64,000 bases of DNA from Rhynchosporium graminicola (taxonomy: Eukaryota > Ascomycota > Leotiomycetes > Helotiales > Ploettnerulaceae), in contig FJUW01000007.1 in the NCBI GenBank assembly GCA_900074885.1, positions 395,898 through 459,897 on the forward strand, written 5' to 3'. The translations under genes and the position numbers were made by a program. Under the pieces are notes generated by a model that saw nothing but the letters and a program-made list of their open reading frames with translations, ran no database searches and was not told the DNA's origin. The stretch's first letter is position 1; each line of letters starts with the position of its first letter. Shown in pieces: positions 1-64,000 of this stretch.

Positions 1-690
1 AAATACTTTCTCTATAGAACGCCTTAAAGCCTAAGTCTCTACTAATTATATAGTAGTAATCTCTAACGTAATAATAGGAGTAGTAGATTTCGCGAGATAA
101 TAGATCCGATTAATAGCTTTATAGGTAGCTATAATACTACCTTAATTCAGCTCTGTATCCTTAGCTTCGCTACTAGGAAGTAAACCGGATAAAATAGTAT
201 ACTCTGTATTAATATAGTTAGGTAACTATAACGCGTTAGTATATATAACTATATTTATATTTAAGTAACTTATATGCTTATAACTACTCTTTAACACCGA
301 ATAATACTTATAAAGCTTAGAGTTAAGCTTATTAAACGAGTATAGGAGTTCTAAAATAGGAGTATTATTATACTTTATCTTAAGGAAGGCGCGAATATAT
401 CGTAAGTAATATATACGATATGCTGCTAAAAGAACACCGGCAGGAACTAGTAAAGGCACTATAGGAGTCAGCGTTATAGATCTGTGAAACCCCTGTACCG
501 CACTTGAAACTATCCCTAAAACTAAGATAGGAAACTTACTTATATTAAGAGAAAAGTTAATTAGGTCGATTAATATATAAGATTATAGTAGACTACTATA
601 GTAGTTAGTAACGATACTTACTCTAGGAGCTGTATTATAGTCTAGGGAGAGTAAACTTATAAGTTAAAGTAGTTATCGTAGTTGAAAAGG
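1..690 (-). pseudogene. Antisense reading frame (aORF) of GM copy 1, partial
   Basis: On the strand opposite gag-pol, one frame can be followed from about 690 down to the window edge with only scattered stops that look RIP-made (TAA near 590, TAG after the segment ending VIYTNAL). The longest uninterrupted stretch is 459 to 226 and contains AAYRIYYLRYIRAFLKIKYN and ELLYSFNKLNSKLYKYY, rich in Tyr, Lys and Leu. The same protein segment appears in GM copies 2 and 3. A TATA-like box (TATATAA on the minus strand, about 719-727) lies just upstream. The start codon is not evident. I do not recognise the product. Exon 2 would lie beyond the left edge. Confidence 0.5.
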
Positions 691-12770: not shown

Positions 12771-12771
12771 T

Positions 12772-13030: not shown

Positions 13031-13031
13031 A

Positions 13032-13265: not shown

Positions 13266-13282
13266 TGTCCTTATAAAGTAAT

Positions 13283-13417
13283 ATGACTGAATTCGATTAT
13301 TATAAGAAATATCTAAATACTGTCCCTACCGCGAAAGCCGTGCTGTATTACAGGGATAAGTCGTTCATTCAGGTCGAGAGATAGGTAGTCTCCGGGACTA
13401 TCGTGGGCTTGCTATAA
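13283..13417 (+). pseudogene. Short coding remnant, unrecognised
   Basis: ATG at 13283 opens MTEFDYYKKYLNTVPTAKAV followed by LYYRDKSFIQVER. TAG at 13382-13384 interrupts it and the frame then runs to TAA at 13415-13417. The interrupting TAG could be a mutated TGG or CAG. It may continue the remnant at 12772-13030. No domain is recognised. Confidence 0.3.
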
Positions 13418-13460
13418 TCCTTAAGATGTTTTGTAAAGATACGGCGATCGCTGTTGCAAC

Positions 13461-21423: not shown

Positions 21424-21692
21424 TATAACGACACAAGACTCGAGGCGGTATACGAGCAAGAATAAAACAAGTAGGGAGGCTAAGAGCGATCTTATATAGT
21501 CTACTACTAAGGAAACAAAAAGATAAGGAATGAAGAAGAAGAGAGATAGAGTGCGAGGCACTTTATATATATATACTAGTACTAGTCTGATACTATACCG
21601 AGTCGGATACTAGTTATACCGGGATACCTGTGAACTTAGGCCCTAGTATCTATCCTTCTTCTTATATGATATTCAGATGAGTTATCGTTATA
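21424..21692 (-). repeat. GM copy 2 left (3') LTR, 269 bp
   Basis: Starts TATAACGACACAAG and ends GTTATCGTTATA, the RIP form of the reverse complement of TGTGACGACAGC. It is followed by a C-run, the polypurine tract read on the minus strand. Confidence 0.88.
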
Positions 21693-21954: not shown

Positions 21955-22479
21955 TATATAAAGGAAGGGGTTTATTAATATTAGAGCCTTTCCTTTTCAA
22001 TTACGATAATTACTCTAACTTATAAGTTTACTCTCCTTAGACTACGATACGGTTCTTAGAGTAGGTATTATTACTAACTACTATAATAGTCTGCTATAAT
22101 CTTATATATCAATTGATCTAATTAAGTTAGTTCCCGCTGGTACTCTTTCGGCGGCGTATCGTATATATTACTTACGATATATTCGCGCTTTCCTTAAGAT
22201 AAAGTATAATAATACTCTTATTCTAGAACTTCTATATTTATTTAATAAGCTTAACTCTAAGCTTTATAAGTATTATTCAGCGTTAAAGAGTAGATATAAA
22301 TATATAAGTTACTTAAACTTAAAAGTAGTTATATATACTAACGTGTTATAGTTACCTAACTATATTAATATAGAGTATATTATCTTATCTAGTTTACTTT
22401 CTAGTAGTAAAGCTAAAGACGCGGAGCTGAATTAGGGCGGTTTTATAGCTACTTATAAGGCTATTAATTAGATCTATTA
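21955..22479 (+). pseudogene. aORF of GM copy 2, first part of exon 1
   Basis: TATA-like box at 21955-21962, then the antisense frame containing AAYRIYYLRYIRAFLKIKYN near 22155-22210, as in GM copies 1 and 3. This copy lacks about 110 bp near 22125 that the others have. G1 inserted into the frame at 22480; it resumes at 32325. Confidence 0.5.
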
Positions 22480-22714
22480 TGTGACGACTGGTCAGGTTTA
22501 GAGGTCTCTCCCTATTAGTAGAAACACTTACTGCTAAGCGAGATTACACGAGTAGAGTTTAGGGGCCCCTTTTCATATATATACTTCTATTCTCTCTCTA
22601 CTTCTTCACTCCTTAGTTATAGATTCTCAAGTAATTCTTAATAATTAATATTAATAGAAATATAAGGTCTTATTACTAAAGTAGTTTTAAGACCTTTCTA
22701 GAGTAAGTATTATA
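22480..22714 (+). repeat. G1 copy 1 5' LTR, 235 bp
   Basis: TGTGACGACTGGTCAGG at the start and GTATTATA at the end, the RIP form of GCGTCACA. TGTGACG and CGTCACA make a 7-bp terminal inverted repeat. TATATATAC lies at about 22577. Confidence 0.88.
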
Positions 22715-25700: not shown

Positions 25701-25994
25701 TTTTCTAAGGAAGCTAGCGATATTCTCCCTCCTTATCGCTTATACGATCACCGAATTAAGCTTAAGGAAGGGACTAAGAAGAACATTAAATACTCCCCCT
25801 TATATAAGATATTAGCTAAAGAACTTAAAGTCGTTAAGGTGTATATTACTAATAACTTAGCTAAAGGTTTTATCGAACCTTCTCAAGTACTATACGCTAT
25901 ACTTATTCTTTTCGTTAAGAAAGCTAATAGAAGTCTAAGATTCTATATCGACTTTCGCGCACTTAATAACCTCACGAGAAAAGATCAATATCTA

Positions 25995-28295: not shown

Positions 28296-28296
28296 N

Positions 28297-30597: not shown

Positions 30598-31060
30598 CCT
30601 AGCAAAAAACTCGACTTCCCGACTAATAGACCCTTCCGTATAATTAAAAAGGTCAGAAGCTCTTATCGCCTAGAGCTCCCTGCTAGTATAAAAGTACATA
30701 ACGTATTCCCTACTACTAAGCTATAGAAGTATCTAAACAACCCCTTACTAGGATAAACCTTACTGCTACTACTACCTATTAATATTACTAGTAACAATAA
30801 ATAGGAGATCGAAGATATACTTACGTGCCGCAAGCAGCGCAATAGCCTCTTATACCGAGTTTCCTAGTTAAATCAAGACGTCGATCTCATATAGTACGAC
30901 GCTATAGACGTTAAATACGCTCCCGCTAAGCTATAATAATTCCACCTTAATAACTTAACGTAAGCTAGACCTCCTGCTAGACTACCTAATTAGCTAAAAG
31001 CTTTCTACGATAGAATTAATAATTACGACTACCTTAATAATAACAAGGAGATAAACTAAC

Positions 31061-31095: not shown

Positions 31096-31340
31096 TATAA
31101 CGACTAGTCACGACTAGTCAGGTTTAGAGGTCTCTCCCTATTAGTGGAAACACTTACTGCTAAGCGAGATTACACGAGTAGAGTTTAGGGGCCCCTTTTC
31201 ATATATATACTTCTATTCTCTCTCTACTTCTTCACTCCTTAGTTATAGATTCTTAAGTGATTCTTACTACTTCATATTCATAGTAATATGAGGTCTTATT
31301 ACTCAGGTAGTTTTGAGACCTTTCTAGAGTAAGCGTCACA
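31096..31340 (+). repeat. G1 LTR, 245 bp, with a 10-bp duplication
   Basis: Same LTR with CGACTAGTCA duplicated near its start (31101-31120). It ends AAGCGTCACA and is followed by G1 internal sequence, not by a target duplication. Confidence 0.85.
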
Positions 31341-32084
31341 TATATACTCTATATTAATTAGAATTAGAAAGACTTACCTAACTCTACTATACTTACTAAT
31401 AAGTTGAATACTTAGTAAGCTCTAGATTACGCTAATCGCTTACGCGACGCCTAGACTACCGCTTAATCTAGCCTCTAATATGCATAAGCTAAGATATCCT
31501 AATCCTATAATCGCTTACGCTATAAAATCGACTTCACTATAGATAACCTTATCTAGCTAAATATATACTACTTTACGAGTACTCGACCTAGTAAAAAACT
31601 CGACTTCTCGACTAACGGACCTTTCTATGTAATTAAAAAGGTTAGAAGCTCTTATCGTTTAGAGCTCCCTACTAGTATAAAAGTATATAACGTATTCCCT
31701 ACTACTAAGTTATAGAAGTATCTAAACGACCCCTTACTAGGATAAACCTCACTACTGCTACTACCTATTAATATCACTAGTAATAATAAATAGGAGATCG
31801 AAGATATACTTGCGTGCCGTAAGTAGCGCAATAGCCTCTTATACCGAGTTTCCTAGTTAAATCAAGACGTCGATCTTATATAGTACAACGCTATAGATAT
31901 TAAATACGCTCCCGCTAAGCTATAATAATTCCACTTTAATAACCTAACGTAAGCTAGACCTCCTGCTAGACTACCTAATTAGCTAAAAGATTTCTATAAT
32001 AGAATTAATAATTATAACTACCTTAATAGTAATAAGGAGATAGATTAACGCTCGAGGGCGAGCTTTTTTCGGAGGGGGGAGTAA
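31341..32084 (+). repeat. Extra G1 3' internal fragment between two LTRs
   Basis: Matches 30350-31095 (end of integrase, chromodomain-like tail and polypurine tract) but with independent RIP changes, so it is not a simple copy of it. An LTR-internal-LTR-fragment-LTR order suggests unequal recombination between G1 elements. Confidence 0.75.
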
Positions 32085-32319
32085 TATAACGACTAGTCAG
32101 GTTTAGAGGTCTCTCCCTATTAGTAGAAATACTTACTGCTAAGCGAGATTATACGAGTAGAGTTTAGGGGCCCTTTTTTATATATATACTTCTATTCTCT
32201 CTCTACTTCTTCACTCCTTAGTTATAGATTCTCAAGTGATTCTTACTACTTCATATTCATAGCAATATGAGGTCTTATTACTCAGGTAGTTTTAAGACCT
32301 TTCTAGAGCAAGCGTCATA
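32085..32319 (+). repeat. G1 copy 1 outer 3' LTR, 235 bp
   Basis: Ends GCGTCATA and is followed by TATTA, which matches the duplication before 22480, then GM sequence. Confidence 0.88.
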
Positions 32320-32324
32320 TATTA

Positions 32325-32889
32325 TCTCGCGAAATCTGCTACTCTTACTATTATATTAGAGATTACTACTATATAATTAGTAGAGATTTAAGCTTTAAGG
32401 CGATCTATAGAGAAAGTATTTAAGGAGTTAGAGTTTATTAAAGTAATAAGTTAAGATCCTTAAACCTTTAGATACTAGTATAATAATAAAAAAATATAAG
32501 ATTTAGATCTTCTAATAGTAGATTCAGCGAAATCTAAGATAATAGTATAAATAGCGTTAAAGTAAATAAAGGAGTTAAATACTATTATATAGGAATTCGC
32601 GAAAAAAGCTATATTTAAAGCTACGATATCTGATACTAGAGGAAAAAGGAATTTGCCTTCTAGTTAAGAGATAATATCAGATCTAGAGACTCCTAGACTC
32701 TCTCTAAAGAAGAAAGCCCGTAAGATTAGCTATTATATTTAGTCTATTACTAGAGCTATATTAGTAAATTTAGGTAAGAAGTTAGATATAGTAATTCTAG
32801 TTCCAGATATTCTAGATTTACTAGAAGCTCCGGAGAACTTAGAGGAGAAAGCTAATAAAGTAGAAGTAGTAGAGGAAGTAGAGATTTAG
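32325..32889 (+). pseudogene. aORF of GM copy 2, end of exon 1, intron and exon 2 (first contig)
   Basis: Exon 1 resumes after G1 and runs to 32442. The intron is 32443-32499 and exon 2 runs 32500-32889 to TAG. Exon 2 contains SDTRGKRNLPSS and LKKKARKISYY as in GM copy 3. The stretch at 32483-32525 differs from the duplicate (35744 onwards) and has an A run, perhaps a sequencing problem. Confidence 0.5.
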
Positions 32890-34250
32890 ATATAGTATTA
32901 TTATAGAGTATAATCAAGGGATTATCCTTATTAATAAATTTTTAATACTAGTAATTATAATAGTTTATTATCCTCTAAGTAACTATAGTTATTTATTCTG
33001 TCTTCCTAAGCTTTAATCTACTAATCTAGTTTATATAAAGGTTTAGGTTTATTTAAGTTAGTAGTATAGAAGTCTCTAAGCTTATACGAAGTACTTATTA
33101 AGTCGGAAGCGTTATACTAAGTTAGATCCGAGTTATAGCTTAACTAGCTAACTTAATACTTCAGATTACCTCTTAGGAGCTATATAGTAAGTATATCTTA
33201 TAACTCTTACTCTTCTTAAGTAGCGATAACCTCCGGGGGTAGGTTTAGTAGCTTCTAGCCTAGTAATAGATTATCTAGGTCCATAAAGAGTAATTCGGGA
33301 GCGAATATATCGTATATAGAAGATCTAGGGGGTAAATCTAGCTTATAGGAGTATCCGATCTTAGCTAGGACCTAGTATAGTCCTGCTTAGAGGCTAGATA
33401 GCTTCTTACTTAGCTAGTAATTCTTAAGGTTCTTTATAGAAAGAAATACCTTATCTCTAACTTCCTAATCGATATTACGCTGTTTCGGGTCAGTTATAGC
33501 GCTTATCCTCTGCTAAGTAGCTAGTATATTAGCTTTTATAACCTCGATAGCGGATTTAGTATATTTAGCTAAGGATTTAGTATTAGTATAGTTAAGCTTC
33601 TCTTACGATATCGATACGATAGGTTACTTCTAATCCTAGCTATTCCGTAGTAATATATTATATTTAAGAGTATATAGCGCTATACTAATAGAATCATAAG
33701 GTAGAGTTACTTAAGCGCGGTCTATTATTAGTAGTAGTTCGCCCTAGTTACTCTAGTAGTAATTAACAAAAGGTCTAAGGCGTTAGTTAATATACTAATT
33801 TATAATCTCTATTTATTCGTTAGTTTACTAGTAGAAGGAGGTAGAGAGCTTAATCTTAACTCTAATTATATAGTAAAACTCTTACTAGAAAGATAAGATA
33901 AACTAAGCTCCTTAGTCAAATATAATTCACTTAGGAGTATATCTAAATCGATATATCTATTAGATAAATAATATCGCTATCCTACGGGTATCGATATTAT
34001 AGTAGTACAGTATCGATATAAAGTCCTTCCTTAGGCGGTTAATAAATACTAATATCTTATTAAACTCCTAGTTATCAGGCGAGAAGTCCTTAATATCTAT
34101 AGCTAAGTACTATATAAGGTAGCTAAGTACTAGTAATAGATAAAGGAATCCTTACTATTTCGTCTGCTTTAGATAAGAGTACTAATAGAAGCGGTAATTA
34201 TAAGTATACTATTTTATATCTAATATAAGTCCTTTCTAGTAGTAATAAGT

Positions 34251-34370
34251 NNNNNNNNNNNNNNNNNNNNNNNNNNNNNNNNNNNNNNNNNNNNNNNNNN
34301 NNNNNNNNNNNNNNNNNNNNNNNNNNNNNNNNNNNNNNNNNNNNNNNNNNNNNNNNNNNNNNNNNNNNNN
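34251..34370. other. Assembly gap of 120 N
   Basis: The bases on either side belong to two copies of the same 3.1-kb sequence. Confidence 0.99.
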
Positions 34371-37300
34371 ACGACTAGTCAGGTTTAGAGGTCTCTCCCT
34401 ATTAGTGGAAACACTTACTGCTAAGCGAGATTACACGAGTAGAGTTTAGGGGCCCCTTTTCATATATATACTTCTATTCTCTCTCTACTTCTTCACTCCT
34501 TAGTTATAGATTCTTAAGTGATTCTTACTACTTCATATTCATAGTAATATGAGGTCTTATTACTCAGGTAGTTTTGAGACCTTTCTAGAGTAAGCGTCAC
34601 ATATATACTCTATATTAATTAGAATTAGAAAGACTTACCTAACTCTACTATACTTACTAATAAGTTGAATACTTAGTAAGCTCTAGATTACGCTAATCGC
34701 TTACGCGACGCCTAGACTACCGCTTAATCTAGCCTCTAATATGCATAAGCTAAGATATCCTAATCCTATAATCGCTTACGCTATAAAATCGACTTCACTA
34801 TAGATAACCTTATCTAGCTAAATATATACTACTTTACGAGTACTCGACCTAGTAAAAAACTCGACTTCTCGACTAACGGACCTTTCTATGTAATTAAAAA
34901 GGTTAGAAGCTCTTATCGTTTAGAGCTCCCTACTAGTATAAAAGTATATAACGTATTCCCTACTACTAAGTTATAGAAGTATCTAAACGACCCCTTACTA
35001 GGATAAACCTCACTACTGCTACTACCTATTAATATCACTAGTAATAATAAATAGGAGATCGAAGATATACTTGCGTGCCGTAAGTAGCGCAATAGCCTCT
35101 TATACCGAGTTTCCTAGTTAAATCAAGACGTCGATCTTATATAGTACAACGCTATAGATATTAAATACGCTCCCGCTAAGCTATAATAATTCCACTTTAA
35201 TAACCTAACGTAAGCTAGACCTCCTGCTAGACTACCTAATTAGCTAAAAGATTTCTATAATAGAATTAATAATTATAACTACCTTAATAGTAATAAGGAG
35301 ATAGATTAACGCTCGAGGGCGAGCTTTTTTCGGAGGGGGGAGTAATATAACGACTAGTCAGGTTTAGAGGTCTCTCCCTATTAGTAGAAATACTTACTGC
35401 TAAGCGAGATTATACGAGTAGAGTTTAGGGGCCCTTTTTTATATATATACTTCTATTCTCTCTCTACTTCTTCACTCCTTAGTTATAGATTCTCAAGTGA
35501 TTCTTACTACTTCATATTCATAGCAATATGAGGTCTTATTACTCAGGTAGTTTTAAGACCTTTCTAGAGCAAGCGTCATATATTATCTCGCGAAATCTGC
35601 TACTCTTACTATTATATTAGAGATTACTACTATATAATTAGTAGAGATTTAAGCTTTAAGGCGATCTATAGAGAAAGTATTTAAGGAGTTAGAGTTTATT
35701 AAAGTAATAAGTTAAGATCCTTAAACCTTTAGATACTAGTATAATATTAACGCGATATAAGATTTAGATCTTCTAATAGTAGATTCTGCGAAGTCTAAGC
35801 TAATAGTATAAATAGCGTTAAAGTAAATAAAGGAGTTAAATACTATTATATAGGAATTCGCGAAAAAAGCTATATTTAAAGCTACGATATCTGATACTAG
35901 AGGAAAAAGGAATTTGCCTTCTAGTTAAGAGATAATATCAGATCTAGAGACTCCTAGACTCTCTCTAAAGAAGAAAGCCCGTAAGATTAGCTATTATATT
36001 TAGTCTATTACTAGAGCTATATTAGTAAATTTAGGTAAGAAGTTAGATATAGTAATTCTAGTTCCAGATATTCTAGATTTACTAGAAGCTCCGGAGAACT
36101 TAGAGGAGAAAGCTAATAAAGTAGAAGTAGTAGAGGAAGTAGAGATTTAGATATAGTATTATTATAGAGTATAATCAAGGGATTATCCTTATTAATAAAT
36201 TTTTAATACTAGTAATTATAATAGTTTATTATCCTCTAAGTAACTATAGTTATTTATTCTGTCTTCCTAAGCTTTAATCTACTAATCTAGTTTATATAAA
36301 GGTTTAGGTTTATTTAAGTTAGTAGTATAGAAGTCTCTAAGCTTATACGAAGTACTTATTAAGTCGGAAGCGTTATACTAAGTTAGATCCGAGTTATAGC
36401 TTAACTAGCTAACTTAATACTTCAGATTACCTCTTAGGAGCTATATAGTAAGTATATCTTATAACTCTTACTCTTCTTAAGTAGCGATAACCTCCGGGGG
36501 TAGGTTTAGTAGCTTCTAGCCTAGTAATAGATTATCTAGGTCCATAAAGAGTAATTCGGGAGCGAATATATCGTATATAGAAGATCTAGGGGGTAAATCT
36601 AGCTTATAGGAGTATCCGATCTTAGCTAGGACCTAGTATAGTCCTGCTTAGAGGCTAGATAGCTTCTTACTTAGCTAGTAATTCTTAAGGTTCTTTATAG
36701 AAAGAAATACCTTATCTCTAACTTCCTAATCGATATTACGCTGTTTCGGGTCAGTTATAGCGCTTATCCTCTGCTAAGTAGCTAGTATATTAGCTTTTAT
36801 AACCTCGATAGCGGATTTAGTATATTTAGCTAAGGATTTAGTATTAGTATAGTTAAGCTTCTCTTACGATATCGATACGATAGGTTACTTCTAATCCTAG
36901 CTATTCCGTAGTAATATATTATATTTAAGAGTATATAGCGCTATACTAATAGAATCATAAGGTAGAGTTACTTAAGCGCGGTCTATTATTAGTAGTAGTT
37001 CGCCCTAGTTACTCTAGTAGTAATTAACAAAAGGTCTAAGGCGTTAGTTAATATACTAATTTATAATCTCTATTTATTCGTTAGTTTACTAGTAGAAGGA
37101 GGTAGAGAGCTTAATCTTAACTCTAATTATATAGTAAAACTCTTACTAGAAAGATAAGATAAACTAAGCTCCTTAGTCAAATATAATTCACTTAGGAGTA
37201 TATCTAAATCGATATATCTATTAGATAAATAATATCGCTATCCTACGGGTATCGATATTATAGTAGTACAGTATCGATATAAAGTCCTTCCTTAGGCGGT

Positions 37301-37511
37301 TAATAAATACTAATATCTTATTAAACTCCTAGTTATCAGGCGAGAAGTCCTTAATATCTATAGCTAAGTACTATATAAGGTAGCTAAGTACTAGTAATAG
37401 ATAAAGGAATCCTTACTATTTCGTCTGCTTTAGATAAGAGTACTAATAGAAGCGGTAATTATAAGTATACTATTTTATATCTAATATAAGTCCTTTCTAG
37501 TAGTAATAAGT
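34371..37511. repeat. Second copy of 31110-34250
   Basis: Includes a G1 LTR without its first 14 bp (34371-34601), the G1 3' fragment, the last G1 LTR (35346-35580), target bases TATTA (35581-35585) and GM copy 2 sequence. It continues into unique GM sequence at 37512, so this copy is the one joined to the rest of the element. Confidence 0.85.
35586..36150 (+). pseudogene. aORF of GM copy 2, second contig: exon 1 end, intron, exon 2
   Basis: Exon 1 part 35586-35703; intron 35704-35760 (57 bp, GTAATA donor, ATTAAC branch-like motif, acceptor now AA where GM copy 3 has AG); exon 2 35761-36150, 129 codons plus TAG. Exon 2 has the same length as in GM copy 3 and the same frame, with segments KKAIFKATISDTRGKRNLPS, PDILDLLEAPENLEEKANKV and EVVEEVEI. 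A 1-bp length difference from GM copy 3 falls inside the intron. Several stops are CAG or CAA to TAG or TAA changes. Confidence 0.6.
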
Positions 37512-43582: not shown

Positions 43583-44448
43583 TATCTATAGGTAAGATCT
43601 TCTTAGTAAGATAAGACTTCTTAGAGCGTAACTCTATCGATTCGGCGCTAAGAGAGGGAGATAGTTTATTAAGAATAATATCCTCTCTCTTAGTATTATA
43701 TATTAGAATAGAGTTTATTAGCTTATTAAACTCTAGAATATATAGAGATTATAGTATTAGTTCTAATAGGAGAGTCGAAAATAGGCGGGAGACCCTTATA
43801 AGGAACTTATCTTATACGAAGATTAGTTTATCTATAGTATCTTCTAAAGAGTTATTCTTTTCCTCTTAGTTTACTAATTGTTATAAGAGGGAATAGATCA
43901 GGTTCGAGTTATCTATAGTAGTAAGAGTACTTAGCGATTATACTCCTAGGGAATTTCGCTTTTATTTTCTTTTCCCTCTTAGTTAATACTTCTTTAATAA
44001 GATATTAATATTCTCTAGTATAAGAGATATTTAGAGTAAGGAAAAGTATAACGGATTAGGTTCAGAGGTAGAGTAAGAGGGGTCGCGTCAGGTTCCCCTA
44101 GAACTAGAGAGGTCTCTAGTTTATTAGTTAGGAGCTATAATAGTAGCTTAAAAAGGGGTATATTAGGGCTATTTCGGCGGTAATACGTAGAGATTAAAGT
44201 TCCGGAGTATTTATTATACTTTATTCAAAATCTATCTATAATTCCTTTATACTAAGAGGGTTATTAAAAGAGTATTAATAAAGACCTTCTCTATTATATT
44301 ATTTATAATAAGCTGAATTAAACCCTGATTTATAGCTATCTAAGAGATCTCTAGTATCTTAGCTATATACGAGTACTTATCGAATAACTAACTTAGTAAT
44401 AAGATATTATAATAAGCTATCTTCGGCTTTCTTAATCTTTTTATTTAA

Positions 44449-44717
44449 TATAATAATATAAGACTCGAGGCGGTATATAAGTAAGAATAAAATAAGTAGG
44501 GAAGCTAAGAGCGATCTTATATAGTCTATTACTAAGGAAATAAAAAGATAAAGAAAGAAGAAGAAGAGAGATAAAGTATAAGGTACCTTATATATATATA
44601 CCGGTACTATTTCGATACTATATCGAGTCGGATACTAGTTATACCGGGATACCTGTGAACTTGGGCCCTAGTATCTATCCTTCTTCTCATGTGATATTCA
44701 GGTGAGCTGTCGTCATA
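44449..44717 (-). repeat. GM copy 2 right (5') LTR, 269 bp
   Basis: Starts TATAATAATATAAGAC and ends GTCGTCATA, followed by AAAAT. Better preserved at its right end than the other GM LTRs, which reveals the family start TGTGACGACAGCTCACC. Confidence 0.88.
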
Positions 44718-52839: not shown

Positions 52840-53254
52840 TGTGACGGCGCATGGTATACGTGGCAGATACGGGCTAGTATCGGTGCCTTAGGCATACCCT
52901 TCTTATATATATAGAAGGTGCAGACTCCTTCAGAGCTCTATATATTTCTGTTTCCTTCGTACTAGACTATATAAGATCGCTCTTAGCCTCCCTACTTGTT
53001 TATTCTTACTTATATACCGCCTTAAGTCTTATATCGTTATATTAAACAGAAAGATCAAGACCGCCGGAGATAGTATTAAATAATATCTCACCTAGAAAGC
53101 TCGATTATAGACGAACTCTTTGACCTCTTTATTAAGTATTCTATTATCTACTTTAATATAGTTTCGGCTCTGATTCGACGGTTAGGCTTTCAAAAGAGCT
53201 AAGATTCCGGAGATCTCTTAGATAGCTGGAGATTTAGGTATAATCGACGCTCAA
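52840..53254 (+). mobile_element. TR-GAG 3: 5' LTR and leader only, cut by GM copy 3
   Basis: LTR 52840-53041 (TGTGACGGCG to ATCGTTATA, 202 bp), then the family leader TTAAACAGAAAGATCAAGACC and about 190 bp of interior. GM copy 3 begins at 53255. The rest of the element would lie beyond GM copy 3, outside the window or lost at the N. Confidence 0.85.
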
Positions 53255-53522
53255 TATAACGACATAAGACTCAAGGCGGTATATAAGCAAGAATAAACGA
53301 GTAGGGAGGCTAAGAGCGATCTTATATAGTCTACTACGAAGGAAATAAAAAGATAAGGAAGGAAGAAGAAGAGAGATAGAGTATAAGGCACCTTATATAT
53401 ATATGCCGGTACTAGCCTGATATTATACCGAGTCGGATACTAGTTCTGCCGGGATACCTATGAACTTAGGCCCTAGTATCTATCCTTCTTCTTATATAAT
53501 ATTCAGGTGAGCTATCGTTATA
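53255..53522 (-). repeat. GM copy 3 left (3') LTR, 268 bp
   Basis: TATAACGACATAAG to GCTATCGTTATA. Followed at 53523-53535 by TATTACCCCCCCC, the polypurine tract in reverse. Confidence 0.9.
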
Positions 53523-53783
53523 TTACCCCCCCCCTAAGAAGAGCTTAACCCTAAGCTCGGAAGGTTATAGTTTATACTAGAATTAGTCTTTATTATAACT
53601 GTTTTCGTCGATATTCGCGTAATAAGCGCTAGCCGCTCTTTAGTAGTAGTAAATTTTTTATTAGGTTCTGACTAGTTACGTCGCTATAACAGTGCTATAT
53701 TAGTTATAGCTTCTAAATCGGGCGGTAAGTAGTATTTACTTTATCTATTTATAGTAGGAGTCGAGTTTAAGTAGGGCGTAGGG

Positions 53784-53790
53784 TATATAA
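53784..53790 (+). promoter_or_regulatory. TATA-like box upstream of the GM antisense frame
   Basis: TATATAA in the context GGGTATATAAAGGAAGGGG, followed about 30 bp later by a C/T-rich tract (GCCTTTCCTTTTC). The box and tract are conserved at 21955 in GM copy 2 and, inverted, near 719-727 in GM copy 1. Confidence 0.5.
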
Positions 53791-53829
53791 AGGAAGGGGT
53801 TTATTAATATTAGAGCCTTTCCTTTTCAA

Positions 53830-54978
53830 CTGCGATAACTACTTTAACTTATAAGTTTACTCTCCCTAGACTACGATACGGCTCCTATAGTAAGTATTAT
53901 TACTAACTACTATAGTAATCTGCTATAATCTTATATATTAATCGACCTAATTAACTCTTCTCTTAATATAAGTAAGTTTCCTATCTTAGTTTTAGAGATA
54001 ATCCTTAAGTGCAGTACAGGGGTTTCACGGATCTATAACGCTAACTCCTATAATACCTTTACTAGTTCCTGCTAGTACTCTTTCGGCGGCGTATCGTATA
54101 TATTACTTGCGATATATTCGCGCTTTCCTTAAGATAAAGTATAATAATACTCCTATTTTAGAACTCTTATGCTCGTTTAATAAGCTTAACTCTAAGCTTT
54201 ATAAGTATTATTTAGTATTAAAGAGTAGTTATAAGTATATAAGTTACTTAAATATAAACGTAGTTATATATACTAACGCGTTATAGTTACTTAATTATAT
54301 TAATACGGAATATACTATTTTATCCGGTTTACTTTCTAGTAGCGAAGCTAAGGATACGGAGCTAAATCGGAGTAGTATTATAGCTACTTATAAAGCTATT
54401 AATCGGATCTATTATCTCGCGAAATCTACTACTCTTACTACTACGTTAGAGATTACTACTATATAATTAGCAGAGACTTAAGCTTTAAGGCGTTCTATAG
54501 AGAAAGTATTTAAGGAGTTAGAGTTTATTAAAGTAATAAGTTACGATCTTAAACCCTTAGATACTAGTATAATACTCACGTGATATAGGATTTAGATCTT
54601 CTAATAGTCGATTCGGCGGAGTCTAAGTTAATAGCTGAAATAGTATTAAAGCAGACGAAGGAATTAAATAGTATTATACGGGAATTTATAAAGAAAGCTA
54701 TATTTAAAGCTACGATATCTGATACTAAAGGAAAGAGGAATTTACCTTCTAGTTTAGAGATAGCGTTAGATCTGGATACTCCCGGACCTTCTCTAAAGAA
54801 GAAAGCCCGTAAGATTAGCTATTACACTTAGTCTACTATTAGGGCTATATTAGTAGATTTAGGTAAGGAGTTAGATATAGTAGTTCTAGTTCTAGATATT
54901 CTAGATTTACTAGAAGCTCCGGAGAACTTAGGAGAGAAAACCGGTAAAATAGAAGTAGTTAAAGAAGTAGAGTTCTAG
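53830..54978 (+). pseudogene. aORF of GM copy 3: spliced antisense reading frame of unknown function
   Basis: It lies on the strand opposite gag-pol. Exon 1 reads to 54532 in the frame of 54065 (AAYRIYYLRYIRAFLKIKYN; LLSSSEAKDTELN; ALRRSIEKVFKELEFIK), with stops that look RIP-made and one probable 1-bp indel near 53995 relative to GM copy 1. A 56-bp intron (54533-54588: GTAATA, CTCAC, ATAG) joins phase 0 to phase 0. Exon 2 (54589-54978, 129 codons plus TAG) is almost free of stops: ESKLIAEIVLKQTKELNSII, SDTKGKRNLPSSLEIALDLD, LDILDLLEAPENLGEK. The product, perhaps 300-350 residues, is charged and helical with no recognised domain. The start codon is unclear. It could be a regulator, a captured host gene or an accessory factor; this is open. 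Confidence 0.6.
54533..54588 (+). other. Proposed intron of the GM antisense frame (56 bp)
   Basis: GTAATA donor, CTCAC branch-like motif at 54575-54579, ATAG acceptor. The only length difference to GM copy 2 in this neighbourhood (57 bp there, 35704-35760) falls inside it, and the reading frame resumes in both copies. Confidence 0.55.
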
Positions 54979-55049
54979 ATATAGTATTATTACGAAGTAT
55001 AATTAGGGGATTATCCTTAGTAATAAATTCTAATACTAGTAACTATAAT

Positions 55050-58000
55050 AGCTTATTATCCTCTAAGTAACTATAGTTATCTATTCCGTCTTCTTAGGCC
55101 TTAATCTATTATTCTAGTTTACGCGGAGGTCTAGGTTTACTTAGGTTAGTAGCGTGGAAGTCTCTAAGCTTATACGGAGTACCTATTAGGTCGGAAGCGT
55201 TATACTAAGTTAGGTCCGGGTCGTAGCCTAGCTAGCTAACTTAATACTTCAGATTACCTCTTAGGAGCTATATAGCGAGTATATCTTATAACTCTTACTC
55301 TTCTTAAGTAGCGATAACCTCCGGGGGTGGGTTTTATAACTCCTAGCCTAGTAATAAGTCGTCCGGGTCCTTAAAGAGCAATTCGGGAGCAAATATATTA
55401 TAAATAGAAGATCCTGGGGGTAAATCTAGCTTATAGGAGTATCTGATCTTAGCTAGGACCTAGTATAGTCTTGCTTAGAGACTAGATAGCTTCTTACTTA
55501 GCCGGTAATTCTTAAGGTTCCTTATAAAGAGAAATACCTTATTTCTAACTTCCTAGTTAATACTGCGCTATTTCGGGTCGGTTACGGCGCTTATCTTATA
55601 CTAAGTAGCTAGTATATTAGCTTTTGCAACCTCGATAGCGGATTTAGCACGTTTAGCTAGGGATTTAGTATTAGTATAATTAAGCTTCTCTTGCGATATC
55701 GATCCGGTAAGTTACTTCTAGTCTTAGCTATTCCGTAGTAGTATACCGTATTTAAGGGTATATAGCGCTATACTGATAGAGTCGTAAGGTAGAGTTACTT
55801 AGGCGCGGTCTATTATTAGTAGTAGTTCGCCCTAGTTACTCTAGTAGTAATTAACGAAAGGTCTAAGGTATTAGTTAATATACTAATTTATAATCTCTAT
55901 TTATCTGTTAGTTTACTAGTAGAAAGAGGTAGAGAGCTTGACCTTAACTCTAATTATATAGTAAAACTCTTACTAGAAGGATAAGACTAACTAAGCTCCT
56001 TAGTCGGATATAATTAACTTAGGGGTATATCCGAAACAATATATCTATTAGATAAATAATATCGCTATCCCGCAGGTATCGATATTATAGTAGTATAGTA
56101 TTGATATAGAGTCCTTCCCTAGGTAGTTAATAAATACTAATATCCTATTAAATCCTTAGTTATTAGGCGGGAAGTCCTTAAAATCTATAGCTAGGTACTA
56201 TATAAGGTAGCTAGGTACTAGTAATAAGTATAGGAATCCTTATTATTTCGTTTGCTTCGGATGAGAGTACTGATAGGAGCGGTAATTACAAGTATACTAT
56301 TTTATATCCGATATAAGTCCTTTCTAATAGTAATAGGTAGAAATTATTTCGGTAGTCTTATAAGTATTTAGATAAGTAGAGGAAACTTAATCGTAGATTT
56401 CGCTAATTAAACAGGTATATAGCGGGGTATAGTATTATATATATAGATAACTATTATAAAGTAGTAAACTATTATTAATAGTATAGCTATCTCTTAATAT
56501 ATTCCGTTTATTAGAGAACGATTCTCAGTTGAATTAGTATAGCTTCTCGATCAAATCAAAGGAATTACGTGCGGGTTCCGGTAGCGTATTAGTCCTTAGC
56601 GATATTAGGTATATATAGCTAATTTGATCGATATAATACTTAGCTAGTTCTATATTAATCCTAAAGTCTAGGTAGTCTAGAGGTAGTAAAACCTAAGATC
56701 TACTATCCTATTTCTATTATTCTTATATCCTTAGATCTTATTCCCTATAGCTAAGGATATTAGCTTTAGCGTTATCTTTACTAAGTATATATATAATTTG
56801 AAAGTTGAATTCGGAAAGGAATTCTATCTATCTAGCTTACTTACTAGTTAGGACCTTAGTAGTTATAAAGTATTCTAAGGATCGATAGTCCGTATATACG
56901 CCGGTATAGCGTTATAAAGATATAAGTTCCGGTCTCTATTTCCGGAAAGACTTAATAATAGCGTATAGCTTCTTATTATAGATCTCCTAGTTTAGTTCAT
57001 ATCTATTAAGAACATAGGAGTAGAATCTAATTAGATACTACTAGTTATCTTTATATAATTAGGAGATAACTCTAGTTATTATATTATTAGAAGTATTAGT
57101 TTCTAGTTTAGTTTATAATTTAGGGTCGAAATAGTATAGTTTCTGCACTAATAGTAGCTATTAATATAAATCGTCGAAGGACTTCTTATAATCGTTAGTG
57201 AAATTCTATAGTACTATAGGCCGAGTAAGCACTAAGAGAAGTTTAGCGATAAGGCCGAAATTCCGAATAAATTAATAGTAGAACTTATAGAATCCTAGGA
57301 AGGATTTCATAGCTATTACTATTTCGGGGTACTTCTAGTCTATTAATAGTACTACTTTCTCGGGATCTAGCTCGATTCCGTTAGTAGTAATAATATATCT
57401 AAGGTATTTAGTCCGAGTAATATAGAATTCGCTTTTCTTAATATTTACCTAAAGTCTAGTATCTATTAAGCGTTATAATACTAATTTAATATATTCCTTA
57501 TATTCCTAGAGCGTTTCCGAGTATATAAGGATATTATCTAAGTAAGCTATATAGAAATTATCTAAGTAGTCTAGTAGTATATTATTTATATATCGCTAGT
57601 ACGTACTAGGTCCGTTATAGAGCTTAAAAGGTAATACTTTATATTTATAAGATCCGAAGCGGGTTCGGAAGGTAGTATACTCTTCTGATTCGGGGTCTAT
57701 ATAGATACGGTTAAATACTACCCGGATATCTAGTTTAGTAAAGATTACTACTTTAGATATATAAGTTAAGAGCTTATCGATCCTAGGTATTAGGTATAAA
57801 TCCTTTCGAGTGATCGTATTAAGCTTACGATAGTTAATATAGAAGCGTAATCCTCTATTAGCCTTTTTAACGAATAATATAAGTAATATAAAAGGACTTT
57901 AGCTAGATTCGATAAATCCCTTATTTAGGTTCTTTATAAGATACTCTTTAGTTACTTATAATTAATCTGTAGATTACTAATATAAAGGCGAATATACGTT

Positions 58001-60700
58001 AGGTAATAGTTCTTCTAGAATGATTTTATAATCGTATAAGTAATATAGCGGAAGAATATTAGAATCCCGCTTAGAAAAGGGTTCTTTAAGGGTATAGTAT
58101 TATTCCGGTAGCTTTTCGGCTACGAGTCGTTCGGTATCGGGATCCTTAGGAGAGTCACTGTTTAGACGGTCTTATAAGAGGTAGTCTATCTTATAGATAC
58201 TAGTAAAGAATAATTCGGAACTTTTATATTTTATATTAAAGTAAAAAGCTATAGTACTAATTTAGTAAATCGGAACCGGTTTCTAGATCCTTAGAGGTTA
58301 AGAGGAGCACTTATAGTAAAGTTTCGGCGCAAGTACCTTTCTCGATGAATTCGGAGCAGAAAAGGGTTCGGATTCCTTAGCGATAAGCGGAAATAAGTTA
58401 AAGGGTAGGGATAATATATTAATATACTATATCGCTACTATTTAGTATAATTAGCGTTAGTCTAGCTAGTTTATAGCTAAGTCCCGCGTATTAGCGTCGA
58501 TTTAGTAAGATCGATTAATATTAGGTTTACGAGGCGGTAAAGTTATAATTATCTCCTTATTATATCAGAGAGTAGCTAGATAGCGTTCTAATTATAGTAG
58601 CTTATAGTAGAGCGTATCTAGCTTAACCTGAAATCGTTATATCTATTTAATACTAATAATTATATCTTATTATCCTAAATCAAGGAGAATAAAAGGGCAG
58701 TTATAAATACGCTTACTATTAATAGAAAGGTATAAACGTATGAAATAAGTAATATAAGTTCTAATAGACTATTGGAAACTATATATTAGAATAGAATAAA
58801 GTAGTAGCTCGATTTTGATACTAAGAGCTCCTAATAGTCGTCTAGTAAGAGTGCGATTAATAAATAGATAACTGTTCGCTCCGGTATCGATTAGGCTATT
58901 TATAGAGACTCTTAGCCCGTTTATATTAACTATAGTTAGGTATATAAATTGCTTACTTCTTATTAAGGAGTTAAGGTCTAGATTAAAGAGATTATACTTA
59001 TATAGACTTAAGAAGGAGTTTTTACTTAGGCTTTATCGTTTCCCTCTAGTATTAGTCTAGATTCGGAGGGTATATCTTCTACTACTTCCTTAGTTACTTA
59101 ATCCTCTTCCGGAAATTCGTTAATTAATTAAACCTTAAGCGGGTTAGGGTAGTCTAGCTTAATATAACCGAGCTATCTATAACTATAATACCTAGGGGGT
59201 TCTCCGGTCGAGGTAGTAGGGCGTTTTAGCGCGGAGGGAGTACTAGCCTGTACTAGGGTAGAAGTATATACGTATAGTATAAGAGTAGTCTATTAAGGAG
59301 CTAAGCTTAAGGACCGGTAAGAGGTAGAACTAGTAGTAGTCGTAGTAGTAATAGTAAGCTTATAGTATTATACCTGGGTAGTAGCTTTCTTAGGATAAGT
59401 ACGTTTTAAGTTATAGTAACACTTAGTATTAAAAGAAAGTAAGGATCTTACTATAGAAGCGTAGTCCTTATTCTATATTAGTTTAATAATAAGGGTTAAA
59501 GCGCATAAGGATAGTATAATCTTATCTTATATATAGAAGAACTACTTCTTCTTTTTAATCTTACTTTAGATAGTAATACTTTAAAATCGATTATAAAACT
59601 CAGTGAAAGTCTCGCGTATATAGCCGGGTTATTATATTTCTAGGCGGTAGAAAGCATTATAGTAGTTATCTTCCTCTAAACTAGTAAGAAAGTTCTCCTC
59701 TAATAAGGAGATTATTTTATCGCTAGTTTTAAACTTATTAGCGAGGTACTAAAGCGTAAGATACTCTTTAGCTAATCTAGTAACTAGCCCTTAAACGAGA
59801 ACGCGCTAAAAGAAGTCCGTAAGGTAGTAGTCGGCGTTTATAGCTAGCTAGTCTTATATCGATACTCTCTATTAGAGGAAGGTAGAGTCCGATCTATTAT
59901 CTAGAGGTAAGATCTTCTTAGTAAGATAAGACTTCCTAGGGCGTGACTCTACTGATTCGGCGCTAGGAGAAGGAGATAGTTTATTAGGAATAGTATCCTC
60001 TCTCTTAGTGCTATATATCGGAATAGAGTTTATTAAGTTATTAAACTCTGCTATACGCGGAGATTATAGTATTAGTTCTAGTAGGAGAGTTAAAGATAAG
60101 CGAGGGACCCTTATAAGGAACTTATCTTATGCGGAGATCAGTCTATCTATAGTATCTTCTAGAGAGTTATTCTTTTCCTCCTAGTTTACTAATCGTTATA
60201 AGAGGGAATAAATTAGGTTCGAGTCACTTGTAGTAGTAGGAGTACTTAGCGATTATACTCCTAGTGAATTTCGCTTTTATTTTCCTTTCCCTCTCGGTCG
60301 GTACTTTCTTAATAAGGTATTAACGTTCTCTAGAGTAGGAGACGTTTAGGGTAAAGAAGGGTATAACAGATTAGGTTCAGAAGTAGAGCGGGAGAGATCG
60401 CATCAGGTTCCCTTAGAACTAGAGGGGTCTCTAGTTTATTAGTTAAGAGCTATAATAATAGCTTAAAAAGGAGTATATTAGGACTATTTTAGTAGCGATA
60501 CGTAGAGGTTAAAGTTCCGGGGTATTTATTATACTTTCTTTAAAATCTATCTATAATTCCTTTATATTAAGGGAGTTATTAAAGGAGCGTCAGCGAAGAC
60601 CTCCTCTATTATACTATTTGCGATAAGCTAAATTAAACCCTAATTTATAATTATCCGAGAGATCTCTAGTATCTCGGCTATATACGAGTAGTTATCGAAT
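55050..60700 (-). pseudogene. GM copy 3 Gag-Pol, degenerate
   Basis: Minus strand, right to left. Gag is at about 60650-59100, with a basic region and a remnant Cys/Tyr knuckle (K-C-Y-Y-N) near 59420-59370. The protease LIDTGANSYLFI has its catalytic IDTGA at 58891-58877, intact. Reverse transcriptase carries the YLDN box at 57544-57533 (AYLDNILIYSETL), where YLDD is expected. RNase H and integrase follow down to roughly 55300. Upstream of RT, a segment RYINNILLDYLDNFYIAYLD is clear. Stops are numerous and of RIP type. The product would be a Ty3/Gypsy polyprotein. Confidence 0.82.
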
Positions 60701-60763
60701 AACTAACTTAGTAGTAAGATATTATAGTAAGCTATCTCCGGCTATCTTAATCTTTTTATTTAA

Positions 60764-60806
60764 TATAACGATATAAGACTTAAGGCGGTATATAAGTAAG
60801 AATAAA
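60764..60806 (-). repeat. GM copy 3 right (5') LTR, first 43 bp
   Basis: TATAACGATATAAGACTTAAGG, then broken off by the N at 60807. Confidence 0.85.
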
Positions 60807-60807
60807 N
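60807..60807. other. Single N at an assembly joint
   Basis: Sequence after the N restarts inside GM at the position equal to 57614. Confidence 0.95.
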
Positions 60808-63800
60808 GTTATAGAGCTTAAAAGGTAATACTTTATATTTATAAGATCCGAAGCGGGTTCGGAAGGTAGTATACTCTTCTGATTCGGGGTCTATATAGAT
60901 ACGGTTAAATACTACCCGGATATCTAGTTTAGTAAAGATTACTACTTTAGATATATAAGTTAAGAGCTTATCGATCCTAGGTATTAGGTATAAATCCTTT
61001 CGAGTGATCGTATTAAGCTTACGATAGTTAATATAGAAGCGTAATCCTCTATTAGCCTTTTTAACGAATAATATAAGTAATATAAAAGGACTTTAGCTAG
61101 ATTCGATAAATCCCTTATTTAGGTTCTTTATAAGATACTCTTTAGTTACTTATAATTAATCTGTAGATTACTAATATAAAGGCGAATATACGTTAGGTAA
61201 TAGTTCTTCTAGAATGATTTTATAATCGTATAAGTAATATAGCGGAAGAATATTAGAATCCCGCTTAGAAAAGGGTTCTTTAAGGGTATAGTATTATTCC
61301 GGTAGCTTTTCGGCTACGAGTCGTTCGGTATCGGGATCCTTAGGAGAGTCACTGTTTAGACGGTCTTATAAGAGGTAGTCTATCTTATAGATACTAGTAA
61401 AGAATAATTCGGAACTTTTATATTTTATATTAAAGTAAAAAGCTATAGTACTAATTTAGTAAATCGGAACCGGTTTCTAGATCCTTAGAGGTTAAGAGGA
61501 GCACTTATAGTAAAGTTTCGGCGCAAGTACCTTTCTCGATGAATTCGGAGCAGAAAAGGGTTCGGATTCCTTAGCGATAAGCGGAAATAAGTTAAAGGGT
61601 AGGGATAATATATTAATATACTATATCGCTACTATTTAGTATAATTAGCGTTAGTCTAGCTAGTTTATAGCTAAGTCCCGCGTATTAGCGTCGATTTAGT
61701 AAGATCGATTAATATTAGGTTTACGAGGCGGTAAAGTTATAATTATCTCCTTATTATATCAGAGAGTAGCTAGATAGCGTTCTAATTATAGTAGCTTATA
61801 GTAGAGCGTATCTAGCTTAACCTGAAATCGTTATATCTATTTAATACTAATAATTATATCTTATTATCCTAAATCAAGGAGAATAAAAGGGCAGTTATAA
61901 ATACGCTTACTATTAATAGAAAGGTATAAACGTATGAAATAAGTAATATAAGTTCTAATAGACTATTGGAAACTATATATTAGAATAGAATAAAGTAGTA
62001 GCTCGATTTTGATACTAAGAGCTCCTAATAGTCGTCTAGTAAGAGTGCGATTAATAAATAGATAACTGTTCGCTCCGGTATCGATTAGGCTATTTATAGA
62101 GACTCTTAGCCCGTTTATATTAACTATAGTTAGGTATATAAATTGCTTACTTCTTATTAAGGAGTTAAGGTCTAGATTAAAGAGATTATACTTATATAGA
62201 CTTAAGAAGGAGTTTTTACTTAGGCTTTATCGTTTCCCTCTAGTATTAGTCTAGATTCGGAGGGTATATCTTCTACTACTTCCTTAGTTACTTAATCCTC
62301 TTCCGGAAATTCGTTAATTAATTAAACCTTAAGCGGGTTAGGGTAGTCTAGCTTAATATAACCGAGCTATCTATAACTATAATACCTAGGGGGTTCTCCG
62401 GTCGAGGTAGTAGGGCGTTTTAGCGCGGAGGGAGTACTAGCCTGTACTAGGGTAGAAGTATATACGTATAGTATAAGAGTAGTCTATTAAGGAGCTAAGC
62501 TTAAGGACCGGTAAGAGGTAGAACTAGTAGTAGTCGTAGTAGTAATAGTAAGCTTATAGTATTATACCTGGGTAGTAGCTTTCTTAGGATAAGTACGTTT
62601 TAAGTTATAGTAACACTTAGTATTAAAAGAAAGTAAGGATCTTACTATAGAAGCGTAGTCCTTATTCTATATTAGTTTAATAATAAGGGTTAAAGCGCAT
62701 AAGGATAGTATAATCTTATCTTATATATAGAAGAACTACTTCTTCTTTTTAATCTTACTTTAGATAGTAATACTTTAAAATCGATTATAAAACTCAGTGA
62801 AAGTCTCGCGTATATAGCCGGGTTATTATATTTCTAGGCGGTAGAAAGCATTATAGTAGTTATCTTCCTCTAAACTAGTAAGAAAGTTCTCCTCTAATAA
62901 GGAGATTATTTTATCGCTAGTTTTAAACTTATTAGCGAGGTACTAAAGCGTAAGATACTCTTTAGCTAATCTAGTAACTAGCCCTTAAACGAGAACGCGC
63001 TAAAAGAAGTCCGTAAGGTAGTAGTCGGCGTTTATAGCTAGCTAGTCTTATATCGATACTCTCTATTAGAGGAAGGTAGAGTCCGATCTATTATCTAGAG
63101 GTAAGATCTTCTTAGTAAGATAAGACTTCCTAGGGCGTGACTCTACTGATTCGGCGCTAGGAGAAGGAGATAGTTTATTAGGAATAGTATCCTCTCTCTT
63201 AGTGCTATATATCGGAATAGAGTTTATTAAGTTATTAAACTCTGCTATACGCGGAGATTATAGTATTAGTTCTAGTAGGAGAGTTAAAGATAAGCGAGGG
63301 ACCCTTATAAGGAACTTATCTTATGCGGAGATCAGTCTATCTATAGTATCTTCTAGAGAGTTATTCTTTTCCTCCTAGTTTACTAATCGTTATAAGAGGG
63401 AATAAATTAGGTTCGAGTCACTTGTAGTAGTAGGAGTACTTAGCGATTATACTCCTAGTGAATTTCGCTTTTATTTTCCTTTCCCTCTCGGTCGGTACTT
63501 TCTTAATAAGGTATTAACGTTCTCTAGAGTAGGAGACGTTTAGGGTAAAGAAGGGTATAACAGATTAGGTTCAGAAGTAGAGCGGGAGAGATCGCATCAG
63601 GTTCCCTTAGAACTAGAGGGGTCTCTAGTTTATTAGTTAAGAGCTATAATAATAGCTTAAAAAGGAGTATATTAGGACTATTTTAGTAGCGATACGTAGA
63701 GGTTAAAGTTCCGGGGTATTTATTATACTTTCTTTAAAATCTATCTATAATTCCTTTATATTAAGGGAGTTATTAAAGGAGCGTCAGCGAAGACCTCCTC

Positions 63801-64000
63801 TATTATACTATTTGCGATAAGCTAAATTAAACCCTAATTTATAATTATCCGAGAGATCTCTAGTATCTCGGCTATATACGAGTAGTTATCGAATAACTAA
63901 CTTAGTAGTAAGATATTATAGTAAGCTATCTCCGGCTATCTTAATCTTTTTATTTAATATAATAATATAAGACTTAAGGCGGTATATAAGTAAGAATAAA
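60808..64000 (-). repeat. Second copy of 57614-60806 (GM RT to 5' LTR start)
   Basis: Offset 3194, reaching the same end point (LTR start at 63958, 43 bp of LTR) at the window edge. It looks identical throughout by eye except near the LTR start, where AACGATATAAG (60767 onwards) is AATAATATAAG (63961 onwards). Contains protease and RT of GM again. Most likely an unmerged overlapping contig or a misplaced read of the same element; a true second GM copy would be expected to show many RIP differences. Confidence 0.85.

What the first reader, a model, noticed from the sequence alone, without database searches (positions are those of the whole stretch)
53784..54978. Conserved, apparently spliced antisense gene in the 3' region of a Ty3/Gypsy element
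Seen directly: on the strand opposite gag-pol, GM copies 1 (459-226 minus and beyond), 2 (22155-22479, 35586-36150) and 3 (53830-54978) share the same reading frame, a TATA-like box and a C/T tract. In copies 2 and 3 a 56-57-bp segment with intron signals joins two frames in phase 0. Exon 2 has identical length (387 nt before TAG) in both, and the only local length difference is inside the intron. Known: antisense frames have been reported in some plant LTR elements but are unusual. Inference: GM carries an extra gene with its own promoter, transcribed against the genomic RNA. It might regulate the element or be a captured host gene.
Basis: partly seen in the sequence, partly recalled or inferred. 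Interest (0 to 1): 0.85.

Follow-up and report, generated by a model that had tools for sequence, protein, structure and literature searches.

The report
Antisense gene in dead fungal retrotransposon
A family of mutated jumping genes in a barley-pathogen fungus carries an extra, probably spliced, protein-coding gene written on the opposite strand near one end; the gene looks real, but antisense genes in this position are already known from Botrytis and plant elements.

Summary
Between pol and the 3' LTR of a RIP-mutated Ty3/Gypsy element, a conserved frame lies on the strand opposite gag-pol and ends at TAG 54976-54978. A short intron-like segment (54536-54588 or 54533-54588) joins two exons in phase. 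In 77 aligned copies, frameshift indels number 5 inside the coding exons and 35 in an equal length outside (p=7e-7); in-frame indels are 8 of 13 inside and 5 of 40 outside (p=0.001). RIP makes transitions, so it cannot cause this. Fourteen annotated 'uncharacterized' Rhynchosporium proteins match the gene. Corrections: coding does not start at 53830 but after about 54015 (candidate 54035). No copy of 79 is free of stops. A transversion codon-position test was not significant. Protein searches found nothing outside the genus, no significant Pfam domain and no usable fold. Antisense genes in this place are known: brtn of Boty (Botrytis, Sclerotinia; same order), gene23 of maize Grande, TRP28 ORFs of Retand; HTLV-1 hbz is comparable. 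I read it as a lineage-specific accessory gene, probably a nuclear regulator of the element; that function, the promoter and the splicing are inferred. New member of a known kind.

The parts
53253..53525 (-). 3' LTR of GM copy 3
   Evidence: repeat matched to 44447-44717; the same repeat at 21424-21692 and 998-1245; inner edge set by the G run beside it
53526..53535 (-). polypurine tract (AGGGGGGGGG) next to the 3' LTR
   Evidence: sequence printed; the role is general knowledge of LTR elements, not tested
53784..53792 (+). TATA-box-like TATATAAAG, putative promoter of the antisense gene
   Evidence: TATATAAA in at least 66 of 79 copies, 3 have no sequence there; function inferred
53816..53826 (+). 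C/T-rich tract downstream of the TATA-like box, putative start-site region
   Evidence: function inferred
53827..54034 (+). probable untranslated leader; a GTAAGT at 53972 suggests a leader intron 53972-54014 (weak)
   Evidence: 10 indels at 53859-53961, 9 frameshifting; further shared 1-nt indels at 53849 and 54003; intron-like ends
54035..54535 (+). coding exon 1 (167 codons), candidate start at 54035
   Evidence: stop counts; indel test; no copy has ATG at 54035, 77 of 79 read ATA
54536..54588 (+). intron (donor GTAAGT-like at 54536, or GTAATA at 54533), branch-like TACTAA[C/T], acceptor AG
   Evidence: 27 of 79 loci are 1 nt longer here and one is 2 nt longer
54573..54579 (+). branch-point-like TACTAAC (TACTCAC in this copy)
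   Evidence: TACTAA[C/T] in 69 of 79 copies
54589..54978 (+). coding exon 2 (129 codons) and stop TAG
   Evidence: stop is TAG in 71 and TAA in 6 of 79, 2 absent; 0 of 129 codon columns is a stop in every one of 30 copies
54962..55600 (-). C-terminal part of pol (SH3 Tf2-1-like, weak); possible pol stop at 55043-55045, convergent with the antisense gene
   Evidence: Pfam SH3_Tf2-1 E=5.5e-4, below the curated cut-off; stop in 76 of 77 copies; shared 1-nt indel at 55027
57599..57898 (-). reverse transcriptase core of pol
   Evidence: RVT_1 8.6e-9; PDB 4ol8 7.9e-16, 7q5b 2.9e-15
58772..59032 (-). protease-like piece
   Evidence: Asp_protease_2 E=0.031, below the cut-off
22128..22480 (+). GM copy 2, part of antisense exon 1, cut by a nested insertion
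35578..36150 (+).
1..663 (-). GM copy 1 (inverted), part of the leader and antisense exon 1 up to the window edge

Best explanation
GM is a Ty3/Gypsy element that carries an accessory gene between pol and the 3' LTR on the opposite strand. Supported by test: a two-exon frame of about 296 codons was kept largely free of frameshifts while the copies diverged, so it made a protein while GM was active; every one of the 79 copies examined now has stops in it. Inferred: a promoter inside the element (TATA-like box at 53784) drives a transcript converging on pol. Its intron can be spliced only from that strand, so it would survive copying through the genomic RNA. The protein has an invariant basic run (SLKKKA) and an acidic tail, and probably acts in the nucleus as a regulator of the element's own expression or DNA. 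I put about 0.9 on 'real antisense coding gene', 0.8 on 'spliced', and 0.35 on 'nuclear regulator of the element'.
For: Indel test on 77 copies: 5 frameshifts inside against 35 outside over 891 and 892 nt, p=7e-7; in-frame 8 of 13 against 5 of 40, p=0.0011. Stop counts against the five other frames and against the AT-rich window. Intron signals, and the one length change shared by many copies in 54035-54978 lying inside the intron. 14 annotated proteins from three Rhynchosporium species match the frame; S-L-K-K-K-A is invariant in all 14. 65 of 79 aligned copies run from the LTR to beyond 55100.
Against: Transversions by codon position are not significantly periodic in either exon. Two codon columns in exon 1 (54284, 54464) are stops in every copy that has them and a third (54479) in 77 of 79; at 54637 the stop alternates with codons that RIP would not turn into a stop. 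In exon 2 one minus-strand frame is also fairly open (3.1 stops per copy). The acceptor AG is missing in 24 of 79 copies. The pol stretch after 55043, a control, has few indels too, but only 2 of 6 small ones are in-frame. The exon limits were set after seeing the data. No transcript data. The structure model has no confidence (pLDDT 51.9). The nuclear role rests on a motif judged by eye.
Confidence: 0.75

Rival explanations
1. The open frame is a by-product: RIP removes CA and TG and makes stops in a frame-dependent way, or the frame is the shadow of a coding frame on the pol strand.
For: RIP is extreme here: (CA+TG)/(AC+GT) = 0.15 in 53253-64000 against 1.04 in 12000-13500. A minus-strand frame over exon 2 is also open (3.1 stops per copy).
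Against: Frameshift indels are depleted and in-frame ones enriched in this frame's exons. Over 54002-54532 the minus frame contiguous with the open one has 24 fixed stops, and the one in the same register to the + frame has 9, against 3 in the + frame. A shared 1-nt indel at 55027 suggests that pol has already ended.
Confidence: 0.07
2. The gene is the orthologue of brtn, the antisense gene of Boty-like elements in Botrytis and Sclerotinia, inherited or exchanged within Helotiales.
For: Same element class, same place, same strand (texts citing Zhao 2011), same fungal order. A Monilinia transcript matches BRTN at 63% identity, so brtn occurs in related genera.
Against: Three protein searches, two of them seeded with annotated proteins, returned only Rhynchosporium.
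Confidence: 0.35
3. The antisense transcript itself, not its protein, is what matters: it pairs with genomic RNA and feeds RNA silencing or dampens the element.
For: Proposed for such genes in the review PMC7264820 (passages). The transcript would converge on pol.
Against: A purely RNA role would not protect the reading frame from frameshifts. Both roles can coexist.
Confidence: 0.15
4. A host gene captured by an ancestor of GM.
For: It has an intron and a promoter-like region of its own, as a captured genomic segment would.
Against: No significant Pfam domain in the 4 annotated proteins scanned, and only Rhynchosporium proteins among the hits. The 279 matches in the genome, from 128 scored of 1898 candidates, would swamp a weak host relative, so this is not excluded.
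Confidence: 0.15

Closest known systems
brtn, antisense gene of Boty-like Ty3/Gypsy elements (Botrytis cinerea, Sclerotinia sclerotiorum; Zhao et al. 2011, seen only through citing papers)
   Same: Fungal Ty3/Gypsy element, extra gene between pol and the 3' LTR, antisense to gag-pol, same order of fungi
   Different: No sequence relation detected here and none could be tested directly; whether brtn has an intron was not seen
gene23 of maize Grande and related antisense ORFs (RIRE2, PvRetro13)
   Same: Position and strand; Grande has a promoter upstream of gene23 and its product is nuclear (PMC7264820, passages)
   Different: Plant elements; no plant protein among the hits
Retand antisense ORFs with the TRP28 domain (PF04195)
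   Same: Position and strand; proposed DNA-binding regulator (PMC11963269, passages)
   Different: No PF04195 match in the four Rhynchosporium proteins scanned
HTLV-1 hbz
   Same: Antisense gene, spliced form, nuclear product that down-regulates the provirus (PMC10186651, passages)
   Different: hbz starts in the 3' LTR; here the promoter-like site lies inside the element. Some automatic gene models do seem to start in the LTR

Membership tests
Ty3/Gypsy LTR retrotransposon | Reverse transcriptase of the Ty3 type | tested here: met
   RVT_1 8.6e-9; Ty3 Gag-Pol chain 7q5b 2.9e-15
Ty3/Gypsy LTR retrotransposon | LTRs, polypurine tract beside the 3' LTR | tested here: met
   repeat pairs, G run at 53526-53534. 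The other LTR of copy 3 was not located
Ty3/Gypsy LTR retrotransposon | Integrase after RT and RNase H, on the same strand | tested here: inconclusive
   Integrase_H2C2 E=9.8e-4 and SH3_Tf2-1 E=5.5e-4, both below curated cut-offs, in order after RT on the minus strand
Antisense additional ORF between pol and 3' LTR (aORF-3R) | Position between pol and the 3' LTR, strand opposite gag-pol | tested here: met
Antisense additional ORF between pol and 3' LTR (aORF-3R) | Coding constraint on the frame | tested here: met
   indel test; the transversion test gave no significant result
Antisense additional ORF between pol and 3' LTR (aORF-3R) | Present in most copies of the family | not tested
   copies were picked by having the gene, so the share of GM copies with it was not measured
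Antisense additional ORF between pol and 3' LTR (aORF-3R) | Antisense transcript | not testable with these tools
   no RNA data
brtn family | Sequence homology to BRTN | tested here: inconclusive
   no hit outside Rhynchosporium; BRTN sequence not available, paper not held
TRP28 (PF04195) antisense proteins of Retand | PF04195 domain | tested here: not met
   four proteins, E up to 1
Chromovirus (Boty-like) | Chromodomain at the end of pol | tested here: inconclusive
   no Chromo match in the C-terminal piece of this mutated copy, read with X at stops

The most novel reading that the evidence does not exclude
Rhynchosporium GM has an independently acquired, intron-bearing antisense regulatory gene, unrelated to brtn and to plant antisense ORFs, so that antisense accessory genes have arisen repeatedly at the same spot in Ty3/Gypsy elements and act like hbz of HTLV-1.
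Probability: 0.3. Interest if true: 0.65.

Novelty: new member of a known kind. Interest (0 to 1): 0.45.

Why it matters
The function of antisense accessory genes of retrotransposons is not known (PMC7264820). A family with many copies and a measurable coding constraint, in a genus of the same order as Botrytis, makes it possible to ask whether these genes share an origin or arose again and again at the same place, and whether their introns and promoters are used. It also suggests that 14 database proteins annotated as 'uncharacterized' are products of transposon copies.

Tried and rejected
Rejected: coding from 53830 (frameshifting indels). Not adopted: a further intron ending at 54286, whose acceptor side (ATACTAACGCGTTATAG) closely resembles that of the accepted intron, but whose in-phase donor GT at 54215 is seen in only 30 of 79 copies among the variants listed; this leaves the stop at 54284 unexplained except as RIP. 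Led nowhere: transversions by codon position, structure prediction (no fold search was run on so poor a model), Pfam on the gene's four pieces and on four annotated proteins. The first alignments used mis-oriented loci or wide flanks and were replaced. Rows dropped: L058 (same place as L001) from the 59- and 79-copy counts; L077 (truncated) and L063 (taken as a near-duplicate of L062) from the test. The coding limits used were set after seeing stops and indels, so its p-values are somewhat flattering. The four '0 of 0' rows are codons split by insertion columns and were not counted.

Full report
What the window is. The window lies in a 55.3-Mb assembly. One annotated hit of the antisense protein, from Rhynchosporium graminicola, sits on a contig of 1,113,126 bases, the length of contig C42 of this assembly, so the genome is very probably R. 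graminicola; R. commune is the same taxon in the NCBI taxonomy. Its genome paper, PMC5118889, I saw as passages and one section: gene models came from de novo predictors, Botrytis and Sclerotinia proteins and ESTs. Much of the window is nested repeats. RIP is extreme: (CA+TG)/(AC+GT) is 0.15 over 53253-64000 and 1.04 over 12000-13500.

Anatomy of the element. The minus strand carries a reverse transcriptase at 57599-57898 (Pfam RVT_1 8.6e-9; Ty3 chain in the PDB), then weak integrase zinc-binding and Tf2-1-like SH3 matches in the right order, both below Pfam's cut-offs. The LTR at 53253-53525 is therefore the 3' LTR, and a G run at 53526-53534 beside it fits a polypurine tract. The frame in question is on the + strand, between pol and that LTR.

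Is the frame real? In 30 copies, exon 2 (54589-54975) has a mean of 1.9 stops per copy. The other frames have 26.6 and 14.0 (+) and 17.8, 3.1 and 16.5 (-). The stretch 54002-54532 has 4.2 against 21.6, 21.3, 18.9, 12.1 and 30.2. In the part of the window with GC up to 0.40, 318 of 106,378 windows of 129 codons have at most one stop. They fall in 8 places: three are this gene (both exons here, exon 1 of copy 1), two are the RT core (one beside a gap with duplicated flanks), one overlaps another element's RT, and two are unidentified (20664-21263 +, 9162-9944 -).

A test that RIP cannot fake. RIP makes transitions, not indels (general knowledge). I aligned 79 copies and counted indels against the window copy. 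Two copies were dropped (L077 truncated, L063 taken as a duplicate). Between 53260 and 55042 the coding exons with the stop (891 nt) hold 13 indels, 8 in-frame. The rest (892 nt) holds 40, 5 in-frame. Frameshifts are 5 against 35 (p=7e-7); in-frame share p=0.0011. Of indels shared by three or more copies, 0 are in the exons and 11 outside. As a control, the pol stretch after 55043 has six small indels, none shared by two copies and 2 in-frame: low density like the exons, but no excess of in-frame ones at this small number. The limits of the exons were fixed after looking at stops and indels, so the p-values are somewhat flattering. The transversion test by codon position gave no significant periodicity (minor count at least 2, both exons added: 21, 12 and 25 at positions 1, 2 and 3).

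Intron and ends. The 30-copy alignment shows no indel from 54004 to 54978. In the 79-copy set, 27 loci have one extra base inside the intron and one locus has two. Copies read GTAATAAGT (48 of 79) or GTAGTAAGT (12 of 79) at 54533-54541, with 19 others, so the donor is either GTAATA at 54533 or GTAAGT at 54536, both in phase. TACTAA[C/T] stands at 54573-54579 in 69 of 79, and the acceptor AG is kept in 54 of 79. The stop is TAG in 71 and TAA in 6 of 79, with 2 missing. The coding part begins after about 54015; 54035 is the best start candidate, and no copy has ATG there. Upstream, TATATAAAG at 53784 and a C/T tract at 53816-53826 look like a promoter. A GTAAGT at 53972 may mark a leader intron.

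State of the copies. None of 79 copies is free of stops; the range is 3 to 21, median 6. Ten codon columns carry stops in at least 10% of copies. At 7 of them some copy has a CAR, CGR or TGG codon, of which CAR and TGG are direct RIP targets. At 54637 the alternatives are not of that kind. Two (54284, 54464) are stops in every copy that has them. At 54284 the stop is also the end of a motif very like the acceptor of the accepted intron, but the in-phase donor is not conserved. I leave this open.

Relatives. Three protein searches found 14 proteins in all, 'uncharacterized', from R. graminicola, R. secalis and R. agropyri. A run S-L-K-K-K-A is invariant in all 14. Pfam gave nothing significant for the gene's four pieces or four of the proteins, and AlphaFold2 gave pLDDT 51.9. 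Several of the automatic gene models begin with a peptide like one read from the LTR. They were probably predicted on mutated copies and are not independent evidence for that start.

What is known. Antisense genes between pol and the 3' LTR are a known kind. For fungi, brtn of Boty-like elements was described by Zhao et al. 2011; I saw only citing texts: PMC8365987 (passages), PMC7264820 (passages), PMC5987419 (one passage), PMC4227169 (passages). For plants I saw passages of PMC7264820 and PMC11963269, and for HTLV antisense genes passages of PMC10186651. In the search listings for Rhynchosporium with Gypsy retrotransposons (8 papers) and for further cases (3 papers, 20 of 1,025 listed) no other fungal antisense gene was evident from titles and abstract starts; most of these papers I did not open, and subscription journals are mostly not held.

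Mechanism. Supported: past protein-coding constraint. Inferred: an antisense transcript from an internal promoter, spliced once in the coding part. Such an intron would not be lost when the genomic RNA is copied, because its splice signals stand on the other strand; its persistence in copies of both intron lengths fits this. A basic run and an acidic tail suggest a nuclear protein, as for the Grande product and HBZ, but this is analogy.

Noticed in passing
window 28296, 34251-34370, 60807: Three of the four N gaps are flanked by near-identical duplicated sequence (25995-28299 = 28297-30601 at 99.9%; 31110-34250 = 34371-37511 at 99.7%; 57614-60806 = 60808-64000 at 99.9%): these look like unmerged overlapping contigs, so apparent tandem copies here are probably assembly artefacts.
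   Followed up: partly
window 25689-26279 (+): A nearly stop-free reverse transcriptase of a second element (RVT_1 4.3e-12 for 25839-26186), about 69% identical to the GM RT region, on the opposite strand.
   Followed up: partly
window 9183-9920 (-): An open frame of 245 codons in an AT-rich stretch with no Pfam match; identity unknown.
   Followed up: partly
window 20517-21395 (+): A long frame with few stops (177 codons with two) just outside the left LTR of GM copy 2, unidentified.
   Followed up: no
window 54270-54286 (+): ATACTAACGCGTTATAG closely resembles the branch-acceptor module of the accepted intron (ATACTAACGCGATATAG in 27 of 79 copies) and ends on an in-frame stop present in every copy that has the codon; no conserved in-phase donor.
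   Followed up: partly
L002, L005, L008, L009, L013, L018, L026, L029, L030: These loci hold a second, partial match to the antisense region within about 4 kb, from nested or rearranged elements or assembly duplication.
   Followed up: no
window 53540-53791: A + frame and a - frame are both nearly open here (2.9 and 3.1 stops per copy), upstream of the TATA-like box; meaning unclear.
   Followed up: no
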